Assembly (NCBI RefSeq): GCF_905475395.1
Contig: NC_058341.1
Span: 67,525,501 to 67,589,500, forward strand
Reading direction: 5' to 3'
Source: Chrysoperla carnea
Lineage: Eukaryota > Arthropoda > Insecta > Neuroptera > Chrysopidae
Length of the DNA: 64,000 bases
The notes beneath the pieces were generated by a model that made no database searches, was not told where the DNA came from, and saw only the letters and a program-made list of their open reading frames with translations. Below are positions 31,446 to 48,480 of this stretch, piece after piece (within the stretch, counting starts at the first letter, position 1; every line of letters starts with the position of its first letter). A program made the position numbers and the translations under genes.

Positions 31446-32003
31446 TCAAAAGTTCGACGAGTTTTACGGTATAGTAACCGCAGTAATGCTATTATTATGA
31501 AGAAATATTTCAGCTTTGGTAAAATACCCTTCTCTAAGTATCTGACAATGCCTTGGAACCCTGTTATAACTGCTATTGTTATTTTACACTATTAATAGTC
31601 CTGCCTATACCATCCAAAAATGAATCCAAGTGATTTCACACGTCAAATCGATGCAGGAACGGGAGAGAGGGCGAATAATTTTCCTCATTGGGCCTATAGC
31701 CGTTTCTTATACTTGTTTTCGTGAATACCGCGATTTTTTTGTTTTGCATTTAAGTAGGTAGTCATATACGATGAACATAAGGGGTCCTTTTTTTAAGTTG
31801 ATATATACTTGAAACTCCATAAATAAATTTAATCGAGGAAAATGCATCAAAGGAAAATTTTAGTTATAAAGGCACACATCTTATACTGGCATCGAATTCG
31901 ATCTAAGTTTTCAGATTCAATTATAACCTTACTCTGATTCATAACTGTCAAACATTAGACGAACTAAATTTCGATTTTTGCCCCAATTCCTAGATCAGTT
32001 TTT

Positions 32004-32065
32004 TGTATTTTTAAAATACGTATTTTCGACTACCAAGTAGTCATCATCAGTAAGAATTAGCTAGT
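32004..32065 (-). ncRNA. Hammerhead-ribozyme-like motif, mirror copy in left arm
   Basis: Exact reverse complement of the motif at 35713-35774, so it points away from the palindrome centre on the minus strand. Its CTGATGA core lies at about 32044-32050. The two motifs would be processed only from transcripts of opposite strands. Confidence 0.6.
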
Positions 32066-32351
32066 GAATGTTACTCTTTGCTAATTTGGTGGCGGACTGC
32101 ACACTGTTACATTCGTGTTTTTACAATTTATACTGTTCACAGTATCTGTCAAATTGTAGTGTCAGTGGCGCTAGCCAATCAACTGCCATCAGTTGACTAG
32201 TCTGGCCAATGAGCATGATACTTGTGCGCAGGCCCATTCGAGTATTTTTTGACGTTTAAAATAATAAATTACAAATCTAACCTAAATTAAAAAACTATAA
32301 ATAAATCATAAAAATAAATAATCCTTTATTTTTATAACGTATTGACAATTT

Positions 32352-33863
32352 TTAGAAATTCAACTTTGATTTTGCAATTTTTATTAAATCCGAATTTGGA
32401 ATAGGTCCTTTGTCCAAGTTCATTGCTTCATTACCCATCTTTTGAATGAAGATGCTTTCATAAGCGTCTAATTCGCAAGGATTGGGTACTGATTTTAAGA
32501 GCTTAAGGTTTGATTTGTCGATTTTGTGGTCGTTTTCGATAACGTGAGCGGCTACACATGATTTTTCAATTCTTCCATATTTTAAATGGCCCATATGTTC
32601 TTTGAATCTTGTGATAATTTGTCTTCTACTTTGACCTACATACTTCTTCGAACAATTTTGACATCCAATGCAATATATTCCCGATTGTTGTTCCATGTTG
32701 ATTTTATCTTTGGGATTTCCAAGTAATTGTTTTAATTTTGTTCGACTAATGGGTGCTATTTTTAAGTTATGTTCTCCAAGTTCTTTTGTTAATTTGTTGA
32801 CGTATGGTTGAAAATATGTAAGTTTGCACCATTTCTTTTTATCGATGCTGTTTTGTTCTGGTTTCAAAGTTGTTGAATTGTTCCTTTGGATTCTTGATTT
32901 TGTTTTTCGGATCATATTTTTGATTATTTGTGGATCAAACCCGTTGTATATTGCAACTTGGTGGATGTGTTTTAATTCTTTAAAATAATTTCTGGTTGAT
33001 AATGGTATTTTAATTAATCGGTTCACTAGGAAGTTGAAAATGGCTAGTTTGTGTTGTGGTGGGCTGTTTGAATCTGCTGTGATGTACCTTTCAGTGTGTG
33101 TTGGTTTCCTGTATATGTCAAAATCTAGTTTCTTAGAATTTGTGTTTTTGGAAATTCTAATGTCAAGGAACGGAATCGAACCGTTCTTTTCGATTTCTGT
33201 TGTGAAATCAATTGAAGGGTACATGTTGTTCAGCTTATTAAGAAAATCTTGTGGATTTTCTTTTTCTGTGTCAAAAATTGTGAAGATGTCATCAACATAC
33301 CTGTACCAGACAGCGGGAAAATAACTGAATTGTTGTTTGGCTTGTTCTTCGAGGTCTGACATGAAGATGTTGCTCAAGAATGGAGATAACGGATTGCCCA
33401 TAGACGTCCCAAATGTTTGTTTGTAGTATTTACCTTCGAAGGTAAACACATTTTGTCTCATGCATAGACGTGTTAATTTTACCAATTCTGTTACTTCATC
33501 CATATGTAAACCTTGATTTTTAAGCCATTTTTCCAACGCCTTTATTGCTTCTGGTATTGGAACACTGGGATACAAAGCTTTGACATCAAATGACATTAGA
33601 ACTGCACTTGGTGCCAAATCTGTATCCTTTATTTTGTTAATTAAATCAATACTATTTTTGACGGAAGACGAATCTGATTCGTTATTTAATGTTTGGAATT
33701 TGTTTACTAGCCATTTTGCAATCTTGTATGTTGGAGAATTTATACCTGAAACTATGGGTCGCATGGATCCATCTTGTTTGTGTATTTTTGGTAAACAATA
33801 CAGACGAGGTGTTACAGGATTCGAACACTGTAATTGAAATTTTAGTTGGTTGTTAATCAACTT
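32352..33863 (-). CDS. Penelope-like RT/GIY-YIG endonuclease, left inverted copy (5'-truncated)
   Basis: This copy encodes the last 502 residues of the right-hand ORF with an identical translation. Reverse transcriptase core motifs are visible in order: PRLYCLPKIHK, the SFDVKALYPSVP aspartate motif, GTSMGNPLSPFLSNIFM, the catalytic RYVDDIF, then IPFLDIRIS. The C-terminal part has the GIY-YIG nuclease signature: GIYC, a CxxC-x2-C cysteine cluster, KYVGQSRRQ, and a later YESIFIQ glutamate. The 5' end of the ORF is the palindrome junction; there is no genuine ATG there (the first codon in the open frame is TTG). Full PLE proteins are longer, with more sequence before the RT core, so this copy is N-terminally truncated. 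It is probably not an independent functional gene, but the reading frame shows no stop or frameshift, which points to recent insertion. Confidence 0.92.
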   Translation of the reverse strand, partial: KLINNQLKFQLQCSNPVTPRLYCLPKIHKQDGSMRPIVSGINSPTYKIAKWLVNKFQTLNNESDSSSVKNSIDLINKIKDTDLAPSAVLMSFDVKALYPSVPIPEAIKALEKWLKNQGLHMDEVTELVKLTRLCMRQNVFTFEGKYYKQTFGTSMGNPLSPFLSNIFMSDLEEQAKQQFSYFPAVWYRYVDDIFTIFDTEKENPQDFLNKLNNMYPSIDFTTEIEKNGSIPFLDIRISKNTNSKKLDFDIYRKPTHTERYITADSNSPPQHKLAIFNFLVNRLIKIPLSTRNYFKELKHIHQVAIYNGFDPQIIKNMIRKTKSRIQRNNSTTLKPEQNSIDKKKWCKLTYFQPYVNKLTKELGEHNLKIAPISRTKLKQLLGNPKDKINMEQQSGIYCIGCQNCSKKYVGQSRRQIITRFKEHMGHLKYGRIEKSCVAAHVIENDHKIDKSNLKLLKSVPNPCELDAYESIFIQKMGNEAMNLDKGPIPNSDLIKIAKSKLNF

Positions 33864-35426
33864 CCAGTTACAGGATTCGTAAACGATGTAAAAGACACTT
33901 TAAAAGCATGTCCAAAGTTGATTAACAACCAACTAAAATTTCAATTACAGTGTTCGAATCCTGTAACACCTCGTCTGTATTGTTTACCAAAAATACACAA
34001 ACAAGATGGATCCATGCGACCCATAGTTTCAGGTATAAATTCTCCAACATACAAGATTGCAAAATGGCTAGTAAACAAATTCCAAACATTAAATAACGAA
34101 TCAGATTCGTCTTCCGTCAAAAATAGTATTGATTTAATTAACAAAATAAAGGATACAGATTTGGCACCAAGTGCAGTTCTAATGTCATTTGATGTCAAAG
34201 CTTTGTATCCCAGTGTTCCAATACCAGAAGCAATAAAGGCGTTGGAAAAATGGCTTAAAAATCAAGGTTTACATATGGATGAAGTAACAGAATTGGTAAA
34301 ATTAACACGTCTATGCATGAGACAAAATGTGTTTACCTTCGAAGGTAAATACTACAAACAAACATTTGGGACGTCTATGGGCAATCCGTTATCTCCATTC
34401 TTGAGCAACATCTTCATGTCAGACCTCGAAGAACAAGCCAAACAACAATTCAGTTATTTTCCCGCTGTCTGGTACAGGTATGTTGATGACATCTTCACAA
34501 TTTTTGACACAGAAAAAGAAAATCCACAAGATTTTCTTAATAAGCTGAACAACATGTACCCTTCAATTGATTTCACAACAGAAATCGAAAAGAACGGTTC
34601 GATTCCGTTCCTTGACATTAGAATTTCCAAAAACACAAATTCTAAGAAACTAGATTTTGACATATACAGGAAACCAACACACACTGAAAGGTACATCACA
34701 GCAGATTCAAACAGCCCACCACAACACAAACTAGCCATTTTCAACTTCCTAGTGAACCGATTAATTAAAATACCATTATCAACCAGAAATTATTTTAAAG
34801 AATTAAAACACATCCACCAAGTTGCAATATACAACGGGTTTGATCCACAAATAATCAAAAATATGATCCGAAAAACAAAATCAAGAATCCAAAGGAACAA
34901 TTCAACAACTTTGAAACCAGAACAAAACAGCATCGATAAAAAGAAATGGTGCAAACTTACATATTTTCAACCATACGTCAACAAATTAACAAAAGAACTT
35001 GGAGAACATAACTTAAAAATAGCACCCATTAGTCGAACAAAATTAAAACAATTACTTGGAAATCCCAAAGATAAAATCAACATGGAACAACAATCGGGAA
35101 TATATTGCATTGGATGTCAAAATTGTTCGAAGAAGTATGTAGGTCAAAGTAGAAGACAAATTATCACAAGATTCAAAGAACATATGGGCCATTTAAAATA
35201 TGGAAGAATTGAAAAATCATGTGTAGCCGCTCACGTTATCGAAAACGACCACAAAATCGACAAATCAAACCTTAAGCTCTTAAAATCAGTACCCAATCCT
35301 TGCGAATTAGACGCTTATGAAAGCATCTTCATTCAAAAGATGGGTAATGAAGCAATGAACTTGGACAAAGGACCTATTCCAAATTCGGATTTAATAAAAA
35401 TTGCAAAATCAAAGTTGAATTTCTAA
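33846..35426 (+). CDS. Penelope-like RT/GIY-YIG endonuclease, right copy (5'-truncated)
   Basis: An open frame of 526 codons. The RT domain spans roughly residues 40-310: PRLYCLPKIHK at 42-52, SFDVKALYPSVP at 114-125, GTSMGNPLSPF at 175-185, the YVDD catalytic box at 212-215, IPFLDIRIS at 253-261, and the thumb-side segment YRKPTHTERYI at 274-284. The GIY-YIG endonuclease lies at about 418-510: GIY at 418-420, cysteines at 421, 424 and 427, YVG at 431-433, a conserved-type arginine/histidine region TRFKEH at 441-446, and a candidate catalytic Glu at 492. This RT plus C-terminal GIY-YIG order is diagnostic of endonuclease-positive Penelope-like elements. The residues encoded before about 33915 come from the spacer and the left arm, so the true N-terminus is missing and no ATG supports the start; the first Met is at residue 57. 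It converges with nothing downstream; a 3' UTR of about 430 bp follows. Confidence 0.93.
   Translation: MVVNQLPVTGFVNDVKDTLKACPKLINNQLKFQLQCSNPVTPRLYCLPKIHKQDGSMRPIVSGINSPTYKIAKWLVNKFQTLNNESDSSSVKNSIDLINKIKDTDLAPSAVLMSFDVKALYPSVPIPEAIKALEKWLKNQGLHMDEVTELVKLTRLCMRQNVFTFEGKYYKQTFGTSMGNPLSPFLSNIFMSDLEEQAKQQFSYFPAVWYRYVDDIFTIFDTEKENPQDFLNKLNNMYPSIDFTTEIEKNGSIPFLDIRISKNTNSKKLDFDIYRKPTHTERYITADSNSPPQHKLAIFNFLVNRLIKIPLSTRNYFKELKHIHQVAIYNGFDPQIIKNMIRKTKSRIQRNNSTTLKPEQNSIDKKKWCKLTYFQPYVNKLTKELGEHNLKIAPISRTKLKQLLGNPKDKINMEQQSGIYCIGCQNCSKKYVGQSRRQIITRFKEHMGHLKYGRIEKSCVAAHVIENDHKIDKSNLKLLKSVPNPCELDAYESIFIQKMGNEAMNLDKGPIPNSDLIKIAKSKLNF
33864..33914. other. 51-bp spacer at the centre of the PLE palindrome
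   Basis: Unpaired sequence between the two arms. It reads in frame with the right-hand ORF (…TGFVNDVKDTLKACP…), so it is the 5'-most remnant of the right copy and is absent from the left copy. The 13-mer GTTACAGGATTCG occurs here (from 33867) and also on the same strand in the left arm (about 33809), so a short direct repeat straddles the junction. Confidence 0.85.
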
Positions 35427-35712
35427 AAATTGTCAATACGTTATAAAAATAAAGGATTATTTATTTTTATGATTTATTTATAGTTTTTTAATTTAGGTTA
35501 GATTTGTAATTTATTATTTTAAACGTCAAAAAATACTCGAATGGGCCTGCGCACAAGTATCATGCTCATTGGCCAGACTAGTCAACTGATGGCAGTTGAT
35601 TGGCTAGCGCCACTGACACTACAATTTGACAGATACTGTGAACAGTATAAATTGTAAAAACACGAATGTAACAGTGTGCAGTCCGCCACCAAATTAGCAA
35701 AGAGTAACATTC

Positions 35713-35774
35713 ACTAGCTAATTCTTACTGATGATGACTACTTGGTAGTCGAAAATACGTATTTTAAAAATACA
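35713..35774 (+). ncRNA. Hammerhead-ribozyme-like motif in PLE 3' UTR (right copy)
   Basis: The core CTGATGA is at 35728-35734. A 6-bp stem II follows: GACTAC at 35736-35741, loop TTG, GTAGTC at 35745-35750. GAAA is at 35751-35754. A short self-complementary stem III, AATACGTATT, occupies 35754-35763, then a U at 35764. Predicted cleavage is between 35764 and 35765. The sequence just upstream (TTCTTA) can pair with that just downstream (TAAAAA) as stem I with one mismatch. Type I hammerheads with tiny stem III are known from Penelope-like elements. Oddity: one extra T at 35735 between the core and stem II, which may reduce or alter activity. Seen in sequence; function is inferred. Confidence 0.62.
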
Positions 35775-35873
35775 AAAAACTGATCTAGGAATTGAGGCAA
35801 AAATCGAAATTTATTTCGACATATCCTAGAGTTCTCATTTATTATCTTCGATAATATTTATATTAGACGAACT

Positions 35874-42791: not shown

Positions 42792-43250
42792 CAATGTAAA
42801 AATATTTGTTATACCGCATCTGTCTTTGTTTTTTGTCTTGCTGAACTAGTACTGTTATAATGCTTGTACTAGTTCTATCTTTTTTGTAACAATTTTATAA
42901 TCTTATATCCTCTCACAAGTGGTATGATGAAGTTGTTTGTATATAATATTAGTAAGATGTACTTTAAATTAAGATCATACTTCACAGGATCATTTCTGTA
43001 GTGTGTCTTCACATTATCTCTACTCAATTGTAGAGTCAATGTAACCACGATGAGGAGAAGTAGTGTGGTTTTCTGAGCGTGAGGTAGATTCGATGTTTGA
43101 CTCTAAGTGAAATTCGAATTAGCGATGATCGTTCAACCCATTTGTCTACAGATGGGTATGGAAACTGCACATGCTGAGTGGTCCTGATATTGAAATTAAG
43201 TATGAAACTAGTATTTAGAGAGCTGCATATGATTAACTAATAGTAATGGT
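42792..43250. repeat. Family D repeat, copy 1
   Basis: It contains CCTCTCACAAGTGGTATGAT, CTACTCAATTGTAGAGTCAA and CTGAGTGGTCCTGATATTG, which occur in the same order at 44289 and 47699. Function and type are unknown. Confidence 0.7.
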
Positions 43251-44288: not shown

Positions 44289-45040
44289 TCAATGTAAAAA
44301 TATTTGTTTGCCTCTCTTTACTTTATTCGCTTTTTTACTTTATTAGCTGTTGCAAAACTTTTACTAGTTCTATCTTTTTTTGTAAAGATTTTATATTCTT
44401 ATATCCTCTCACAAGTGGTATGATGAAGTTGTTTGTATATAATATTATTAAAATGTACATTAAATTAAGATCATACTTCACAGGATCATTTCTGTAGTGT
44501 GTCTTCACATTATCTCTACTCAATTGTAGAGTCAATGGAATCACGATGAGGAGAAGTAGTGTGGTTTTCTGAGCGTGAGGTAGATTCGATGTTTGACTCT
44601 AAGTGAAATTCGACTCAGCGATGATCGTTCAACCATTTGTTTACAGATGGGTATGGAAACTACACATGCTGAGTGGTCCTGATATTGAAATTAAGCACGA
44701 AACTAGTATTTTGAGACCTGTCCATGTGATTTACTCTGATAATCATGGTAACCGTGTACTGAGCCTTTAATATTGCAAAAGGTTTATGTCACAAGTCTCC
44801 ATGTAAGTCTCCTGGAATATCTACGCGTGAAATCCCCTCCCCAGGGGGGAGATTTTATAAATTGTCACTAAGTGATGGTTCTGTCTGCTTGTTTGATAAT
44901 TCAATAGATGTAATTCACAGTCATCCTGCAAAGTTTGAGCCCAAAAAGTCGTCCCAACTCGGAGTTATGCCGAAAAACCCGAAAATGTCGAAACGCAGTA
45001 TACAAATTTGAGGTGATGGTTCTGAAACTGTGTAAAACTT
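44289..45040. repeat. Family D repeat, copy 2 with extended right part
   Basis: The copy 1 core plus a right extension (AGTCTCCATGTAAGTCTCCT, ACGCGTGAAATC) that is shared with copy 3 but not with copy 1. Confidence 0.72.
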
Positions 45041-47698: not shown

Positions 47699-48480
47699 TT
47701 AAATGTAAAATATTTGTTATTACTGTATCTGTCTTTGTCTTTGTCTACTAACTTGCTGTTATAATGCTTGTACTAGTTCTATCTTTTTTGTAACAATTTT
47801 ATATTTTTATATCCTCTCACAAGTGGTATGATGAAGTTGTTTGTATATAATATTAGTAAAATGTACTTTAAATTAAGATCATACTTCACAGGATCATTTC
47901 TGTAGTGTGTCTTCACATTATCTCTACTCAATTGTAGAGTCAATGTAACCACGATGAGGAGAAGTAGTGTGGTTTCCTGAGCGTGAGGAAGATTCGACGT
48001 TTGACTTTAAGTCTAATTCGAATCAGCGATGATCGTTCAACACATTTGTCTACAGATGGGTATGGAAACTGCACATGCTGAGTGGTCCTGATATTGAAAT
48101 TAAGTATGAAACTAGTATATAGAGAGCTGCACATATGATTTACTCTGATAATCATGGTTACCGTGTACTGAGCCTTTAATATTGCAAAAGGTATATGTCA
48201 CAAGTCTCCATGTAAGTCTCCTGGATTATCTACGCGTGATATCATCCCCTCGCCAGGGGGAAGATTTGAAAAATTGTCACAAAGTGATGGTTCTGGAAAC
48301 TGTCTGCTTGTTTGATAATTCATTAGATGTATTTCTGAACAGTCATCCTGCAAAGTTTGAGCTCAACTCGGAGTTATTTCGAAAAAACCGAAAATGTCGA
48401 AAGGCAGTACCTATACAAATTTGAGGTGATGGTTCTGAAACTGTGTAAAACTTGTTTGGTTGTGTTGAGGAAATCGAAAG
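47699..48480. repeat. Family D repeat, copy 3
   Basis: Collinear with 44289-45040 throughout. A partial fourth copy follows at about 48545-48680 (TTCCACGATTCGACGTTTGA, ATGCCGAGTGGTCC). Confidence 0.72.

What the first reader, a model, noticed from the sequence alone, without database searches (positions are those of the whole stretch)
31954..35873. Penelope-like element integrated as a 1.9-kb-arm inverted dimer behind a single target-site duplication
Two identical RT/GIY-YIG ORFs face away from a 51-bp centre; mirror coordinates sum to 67778 from ORF stops to 3' UTR. One 12-bp duplication (ATTAGACGAACT) bounds the whole block, so the dimer seems to have been made during one integration event, not by two insertions. 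A self-primed (snap-back) second strand, in which the 5'-truncated first cDNA folds on itself and is copied, would give exactly this: near-perfect arms, a small loop, and a 3' tail present on one side only. Inverted terminal repeats are known in Penelope-like elements; an almost full-length inverted copy with both ORFs open is a much clearer case.
Basis: partly seen in the sequence, partly recalled or inferred. Interest (0 to 1): 0.85.

Follow-up and report, generated by a model that had tools for sequence, protein, structure and literature searches.

The report
Retrotransposon copied in from both ends
A mobile element sits in this genome as two mirror-image copies, probably because both ends of the cut chromosome were used to copy its RNA; most other copies examined have the same form, which speaks against the older idea that the first DNA copy folds back on itself.

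Summary
At 31954-35873 two 5'-truncated copies of a Penelope-like element (PLE) lie head to head, 1.9-kb arms, bounded by one 12-bp target duplication. The rest of the genome (559 Mb, eukaryote) shows that this is the family's habit. Of 57 head-to-head insertions tabulated, 56 have exactly one outer end with a ~48-nt 'tail' and one without, 28 each way round; a duplication of 11 bp or more bounds 54 of 57. The target is dyad-symmetric, AAC-12 bp-GTY. Snap-back fails for the family: in 28 of 59 dimers the untailed arm reaches further 5' while the other arm holds the tail, so neither can be a copy of the other. Best reading: each 3' end of a staggered break primes its own cDNA, one from each of two start sites on the RNA, and the cDNAs are joined in the middle. 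Their 5' limits are coupled (15 of 23 long dimers within 50 nt, shuffles mean 1.7), which suggests one shared RNA. Head-to-head PLE repeats, with self-priming as hypothesis, are in print (PMC3846280), and so are both-strand priming and two start sites in vitro (PMC11167929); I found no paper joining the two.

The parts
31954..31965 (.). left copy of the 12-bp target-site duplication ATTAGACGAACT
   Evidence: exact match to 35862-35873, only two places in the window; family-wide duplications
31966..33863 (-). left arm: 5'-truncated PLE copy without tail (untailed cDNA; unit 2765 to 868)
   Evidence: inverted repeat I1, BLAST to unit, arm comparison
32352..33863 (-). truncated RT/GIY-YIG reading frame of the left copy (stop-to-stop frame runs to 33899)
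   Evidence: the protein of the right copy was searched
33864..33874 (.). 11-nt filler at the centre (CCAGTTACAGG); its last 8 nt with the next 5 nt make a 13-mer (GTTACAGGATTCG) also found at 33811 and, inverted, at 33955
33875..35861 (+). right arm: 5'-truncated PLE copy with tail (tailed cDNA; unit 828 to 2814)
33875..35426 (+). truncated RT/GIY-YIG reading frame of the right copy (RVT_1 E 1.7e-16; GIY-YIG E 3.6e-4, 21.2 bits, below Pfam's cut-off of 22.6)
35646..35653 (+). TATA-like box TATAAATT, about 30 nt upstream of the family's cDNA end hot spot
   Evidence: sequence; hot spot
35676..35677 (+). inferred RNA 5' end (unit 2629/2630): 21 of 118 arm ends in 59 dimers lie at 2629-2630, 23 at 2627-2632
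   Evidence: that it is the RNA 5' end is inference
35728..35754 (+). hammerhead-like core CTGATGA - stem - GAAA (by eye; no Rfam hammerhead match)
   Evidence: sequence, fold, Rfam negative
35813..35861 (+). 'tail': element sequence between the two inferred reverse-transcription start sites, on the right side only; holds a 7-bp hairpin (35840-35856) that folds no better than shuffles
35862..35873 (.). right copy of the 12-bp target-site duplication

Best explanation
Dual-ended target-primed reverse transcription. The element's endonuclease, presumably a dimer, cuts both strands at a dyad-symmetric site (AAC-12 bp-GTY), leaving 12-nt 3' overhangs. Both 3' ends prime reverse transcription inside the element's terminal repeat, one at the upstream start site (untailed cDNA), the other ~48 nt further 3' (tailed cDNA). 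The two antisense cDNAs grow toward the RNA's 5' end and their ends are then joined, with microhomology or filler. Filling in gives a head-to-head dimer inside one duplication. SHOWN from sequence: duplication, symmetric target, one tailed plus one untailed end, narrow start positions, non-nested arms, coupled 5' limits, junction types. INFERRED: enzyme dimer, 3' overhangs, order of steps, who joins the ends, and that both cDNAs come from one RNA molecule. The confidence below is for priming from both ends, with one RNA (0.55) or two (0.31).
For: 56 of 57 tabulated dimers have one tailed and one untailed end; 47 of 47 (window included) among those found with queries that left the tail out. Duplication >=11 bp in 54 of 57, control 2 of 3192. 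Symmetric target in the 32 sites with exactly 12 bp: C before it in 24, G after it in 26. Among the first 100 of 346 places of a 3'-end motif, 32 neighbours within 10 kb are -/+, 0 are +/- and 7 same strand. Non-nested arms in 28 of 59; 5' limits within 50 nt in 15 of 23 long dimers, shuffle mean 1.70, maximum 8 in 20,000 (11 of 22, mean 1.86, maximum 9, if only outermost pieces are used). Arms resemble each other more than the nearest other copy in 13 of 21 dimers, e.g. 0/2766 v 9/2765 and, in the window, 2/1904 v 9/1903. Junctions: 13 of 48 with 3 nt or more of microhomology (chance 6.5%), 26 of 48 with filler. A second PLE family (~51% amino-acid identity) has the same form in 2 of 2 loci read. 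In vitro a lizard PLE cleaves and extends both strands and starts at two adjacent sites that bound the tail (PMC11167929).
Against: No biochemistry for this element. 8 of 23 long dimers have 5' limits more than 50 nt apart. 2 loci (L080, L082) look one-armed with a flush 11- or 13-bp repeat, and 15 of 78 insertion loci remain unresolved. Three tabulated dimers show no duplication of 11 bp. In C1:139523k one variable site (unit 2497) is shared by the outer unit of one arm and the inner unit of the other, and in C3:88807k the two outer units differ at 1783: not what one linear RNA read twice gives, unless mutation or gene conversion intervened. In 5 of 21 dimers the arms are no closer to each other than to the nearest other copy, and in 3 of 21 they are further apart (e.g. 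C3:20169k 4/371 v 0/371). The lizard enzyme showed no start-site difference between strands in bulk: compatible, but no proof of linkage.
Confidence: 0.86

Rival explanations
1. Snap-back (self-primed) second strand: the first cDNA folds on itself and is copied, giving the inverted arm (first reader; self-priming was also hypothesised for rotifer PLEs, on an antisense template, in PMC3846280).
For: Head-to-head form; small loops; the window pair is nested and its filler repeats a nearby 13-mer, as a short fold-back step would. In 20 of 59 dimers the tailed arm is longer by more than 5 nt, the nested order.
Against: In 28 of 59 dimers each arm holds sequence the other lacks; the untailed outer end is at unit 2763-2777 in 56 of 57; several dimers have an internal jump in one arm only.
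Confidence: 0.06
2. Dual priming with two separate RNA molecules, one per end (the scheme called dual priming, as a speculation for L1, in PMC2837659).
For: Explains both outer ends, the duplication and non-nested arms; 8 of 23 long dimers have unrelated 5' limits; off-register sites in multi-unit arms; 8 of 21 dimers whose arms are not closer to each other than to other copies.
Against: Does not by itself explain why the two ends use different start sites in 56 of 57, nor why 5' limits coincide in 15 of 23 beyond what shared stopping places give.
Confidence: 0.31
3. L1-type twin priming: two primers on one RNA give an inverted part next to a direct part.
For: Both ends primed; one RNA.
Against: As I recall the model, the two parts divide the RNA between them; here both arms cover the same stretch from its 3' start sites.
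Confidence: 0.02
4. Assembly or library artefact, or two separate insertions.
For: Near-perfect palindromes can arise in libraries (recalled).
Against: The palindromes end at unique flanks with one duplication each in 54 of 57; 32 neighbours are -/+ and 0 are +/-.
Confidence: 0.02

Closest known systems
Endonuclease-containing Penelope elements of Adineta vaga (PMC3846280; section 6 and passages seen)
   Same: one ORF with RT and GIY-YIG; pseudo-LTRs; inverted pLTR; optional tail at one of the inverted pLTRs; 8- to 10-bp duplications; head-to-head called the most frequently observed arrangement
   Different: in the parts seen the inverted partner is mainly a pLTR, and self-priming is the hypothesis; here arms reach 1.9 to ~8 kb, both start sites are used once per insertion in 56 of 57, and non-nested arms speak against self-priming
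Poseidon from Anolis carolinensis, PAc (PMC11167929; parts 1 and 2 of 4, i.e. abstract and main text, and passages)
   Same: both strands cleaved and extended; two adjacent internal start sites that bound the tail; tandem units
   Different: bulk in vitro data; the text seen leaves second strand and later steps open and does not tie the two start sites to the two ends of one insertion
L1 twin priming and dual priming (PMC2837659; passages only)
   Same: priming from both nicks
   Different: unusual or hypothetical variants there; here the usual product among the copies examined

Membership tests
Penelope-like elements (EN-containing) | reverse transcriptase domain | tested here: met
   PF00078 E 1.7e-16, 61 bits, cut-off 29.6; this alone does not separate PLEs from other retroelements
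Penelope-like elements (EN-containing) | C-terminal GIY-YIG endonuclease domain in the same ORF | tested here: inconclusive
   PF01541 E 3.6e-4, 21.2 bits, below the 22.6 cut-off; motif GIY...YVG present by eye
Penelope-like elements (EN-containing) | single ORF of ~800 aa in tandem or partly tandem units with pseudo-LTRs | tested here: met
   804-codon open frame, tandem period 2818 nt
Penelope-like elements (EN-containing) | optional 30-50-nt tail at one end, inverted repeats, short target duplication | tested here: met
   one tailed end in 56 of 57, duplications of 11 bp or more in 54 of 57
Penelope-like elements (EN-containing) | hammerhead ribozyme in the pLTR | tested here: inconclusive
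   CTGATGA-stem-GAAA by eye; no Rfam hammerhead match
Penelope-like elements (EN-containing) | place in a tree of PLE reverse transcriptases | not tested
   no reference set was fetched; no solved structure matched
Snap-back (self-priming) product | one arm contained within the other | tested here: not met
   28 of 59 dimers not nested; the window pair itself is nested
L1-type twin priming product | inverted and direct parts divide the RNA, little overlap | tested here: not met
   arms overlap over 1.9 kb
Dual-primed target-primed reverse transcription | each outer end is a cDNA start joined to the duplicated target | tested here: met
   narrow start positions at both ends and duplications, target
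Dual-primed target-primed reverse transcription | 3' overhang break with priming by both 3' ends, shown biochemically | not testable with these tools
   only inferred from the duplication

The most novel reading that the evidence does not exclude
One RNA molecule, held by a pair of reverse transcriptases, is copied twice in a single insertion: one enzyme starts at the upstream site, the other ~48 nt behind it, each primed by one end of the same double-strand break, and both stop where that RNA ends or is broken. This would make PLEs retroelements that insert two cDNAs of one RNA as their normal route.
Probability: 0.55. Interest if true: 0.85.

Novelty: new variant of a known kind. Interest (0 to 1): 0.72.

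Why it matters
How PLEs integrate has been open: their head-to-head repeats were put down to self-priming (PMC3846280), and the in vitro work leaves the steps after first-strand priming to be validated (PMC11167929). The copies in this genome act as a natural experiment with 57 tabulated insertions that separates the models. If right, it explains inverted pLTRs, the one-sided tail, multi-unit arms and target duplications together, and it makes simple predictions for the purified lizard enzyme. Enzymes that fill a staggered break from both sides may also interest builders of DNA-writing tools.

Tried and rejected
Snap-back: rejected as the general route. Twin priming, artefact, two insertions: rejected. 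Hammerhead-cut RNA as template: the main hot spot of cDNA ends (unit 2629/2630) is upstream of the hammerhead-like core and ~30 nt downstream of a TATA box, so I read it as the RNA 5' end; Rfam gave no hammerhead. Tail hairpin: present but no better than shuffles (z 0.30). A 'convoy footprint' idea (untailed arm leading by ~15 nt) was dropped: long dimers lean that way, but over all 59 it is 28 against 20, with 11 within 5 nt. Register test in multi-unit arms: mixed. No solved structure matched; no phage record matched. The Rfam microRNA hits at the centre (all below the gathering score) are only the palindrome. PMC12910113 (passages) gave nothing on insertion structure. The organism was not identified.

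Rows and losses: 78 insertion loci of the family were looked at by letters: 57 tabulated dimers; L089 and L090, with a 13- or 17-nt tailed arm (with the 57 they make the 59); L048 and L051, head to head but one outer end not fetched; 17 others, of which 2 look one-armed and 15 are unresolved. Fetching favoured -/+ pairs, so 61 of 78 is not an unbiased share. Only the first 100 of 346 motif places were listed, and not all of those were fetched. Ten of the 57 came from a query that held the tail, so a tailed end was selected there; 9 of these 10 have one of each. The junction count took 56 rows (55 of the 57 dimers, without L055 and L061, plus L048); 8 were set aside for anchor mismatches, leaving 48. 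The 13 with microhomology include three sets of identical junctions. Arm limits were entered by hand from BLAST tables. The three dimers without a duplication of 11 bp are C3:2954k, C5:66757k (which also has the decayed end) and L060. In L055 about 180 nt between the arms stay unassigned.

Full report
What is there. The window block 31954-35873 is an inverted dimer of a PLE. Arms 31966-33863 (-) and 33915-35812 (+) are 1898 nt and differ at one site; a second mismatch listed lies in the target duplication. Both reading frames are open but truncated at the 5' side: stop-to-stop 515 and 526 codons against 804 in a complete unit. Pfam gives RVT_1 (E 1.7e-16) and a weak GIY-YIG (E 3.6e-4, below the cut-off). 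The right copy runs 40 nt further 5' and carries the tail (35813-35861); 11 nt of filler lie between the copies.

The family. G000 holds 559 Mb in 337 contigs; the window is C5:67525501-67589500. The arm has 73 matches, a lower bound, weak ones included. A 3'-end motif has 346 places, 173 on each strand, 0 in the reversed control. Of the first 100 places, 32 neighbours within 10 kb are -/+ (head to head), 0 are +/- and 7 same strand; about 0.6 neighbours are expected by chance; 28 of 61 clusters hold a single motif, and some of those proved to have a short second arm. A complete unit is 2818 nt and occurs in tandem. Arms can hold more than one unit: about 4 kb each at C1:139523k and 8 kb each at C3:88807k.

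Both outer ends are narrow and different. In 57 head-to-head insertions the outer ends are at unit 2811-2818 (tailed) or 2763-2777 (untailed), but for one decayed end at 2748. 28 are tailed on the left only, 28 on the right only; none was seen with two tails or none. By origin: 16 (query without tail) and 31 (motif without tail), all 47 with one of each; 10, whose query held the tail, 9 with one of each. If each end chose its start site at random and evenly, half would be alike.

One event. Duplications of 11 bp or more bound 54 of 57 (32 are exactly 12); flanks of different dimers paired gave 11 or more in 2 of 3192. Oriented by the tail, the 32 exact-12 sites show C at -1 in 24, G at +1 in 26, A at -4 to -2 in 16, 20 and 19, T at +2 in 22 and C or T at +3 in 31: a dyad with no clear side for the tail. 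This fits a dimeric nuclease cutting both strands (inference).

Snap-back tested. A folded-back cDNA yields an arm contained in the first. In 28 of 59 dimers the untailed arm has more than 5 nt of extra 5' sequence while the tail is on the other arm; in 20 of 59 the tailed arm is longer; 11 of 59 are within 5 nt (final limits; 25, 23 and 11 with outermost pieces). In C2:96352k, C3:2954k, C6:13301k and C1:33615k the arms have different internal jumps, or a jump in one arm only; later deletion is possible in each. On the whole the arms look separately made.

One RNA or two. Among 23 dimers with both arms beyond the terminal repeat, 15 have 5' limits within 50 nt; shuffling partners gave a mean of 1.70 and at most 8 in 20,000 trials. 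With outermost pieces only it is 11 of 22, mean 1.86, at most 9. Limits cluster at some positions, which the shuffle allows for. Arms resemble each other more than the nearest other copy in 13 of 21 dimers, equally in 5 and less in 3. Against one RNA: 8 of 23 are far apart, and sites in C1:139523k (2497) and C3:88807k (1783) are off register.

RNA 5' end. 21 of 118 arm ends in 59 dimers lie at unit 2629-2630 and 23 at 2627-2632, about 30 nt below TATAAATT (window 35646): the likely transcription start, so these may be run-off products begun in the first terminal repeat of the RNA. This is inference.

Joining. Of 48 scored junctions 13 have 3 nt or more of microhomology (chance 6.5%), 7 have 1-2 nt, 2 are blunt and 26 have filler; insertions with different duplications reuse the same 3-, 4- or 7-nt matches. 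The window filler with 5 nt of the right copy repeats a 13-mer that lies 56 nt away. This resembles polymerase-theta-type end joining (recalled, not tested).

Second family. PLE copies of ~51% amino-acid identity also lie in -/+ pairs. Two loci were read: C3:75437100-75445000 (arms 2872 nt, 100% identical; tail of about 40-50 nt on the right only; untailed arm 120 nt longer 5'; an 11-nt repeat AACATTCTCAG at both outer ends, confirmed, though the automatic test had missed it and reported 7 nt elsewhere) and C3:82943700-82951700 (6.5-kb palindrome, tail on the left only, 12-bp duplication).

Literature. PMC3846280 (section 6 and passages seen) calls head-to-head the most frequently observed arrangement and hypothesises self-priming on an antisense template. 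PMC11167929 (main text seen) shows both strands cleaved and extended and two start sites bounding the tail. PMC2837659 (passages) names dual priming for L1 as a speculation. In what I saw of the listings of searches no paper ties the two start sites to the two ends of one insertion; most subscription papers are not held, and Craig et al. 2021 could not be opened.

Noticed in passing
42971-43182, 44467-44677, 47875-48086 (+): Three U3 snoRNA gene copies in one 5-kb stretch, all matching the whole Rfam model.
   Followed up: no
L014 3646-3691 (C3:88807k): A T-rich filler of 46 nt with a T tract of about 34 lies at the junction between two 8-kb arms, as if the left cDNA had run onto a poly(A) stretch.
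   Followed up: partly
G000, whole genome: The tail motif has 1344 places against 346 for the neighbouring 3'-end motif, so further subfamilies or very short tailed arms probably exist.
   Followed up: no
L058, L060, L078; L056, L063, L076; L057, L072: Short insertions in different places share exactly the same internal junction (7-, 3- and 4-nt microhomology).
   Followed up: partly
L091 around 640-880: A one-armed tailed copy lies next to a 25-nt repeat instead of a 12-bp duplication.
   Followed up: no
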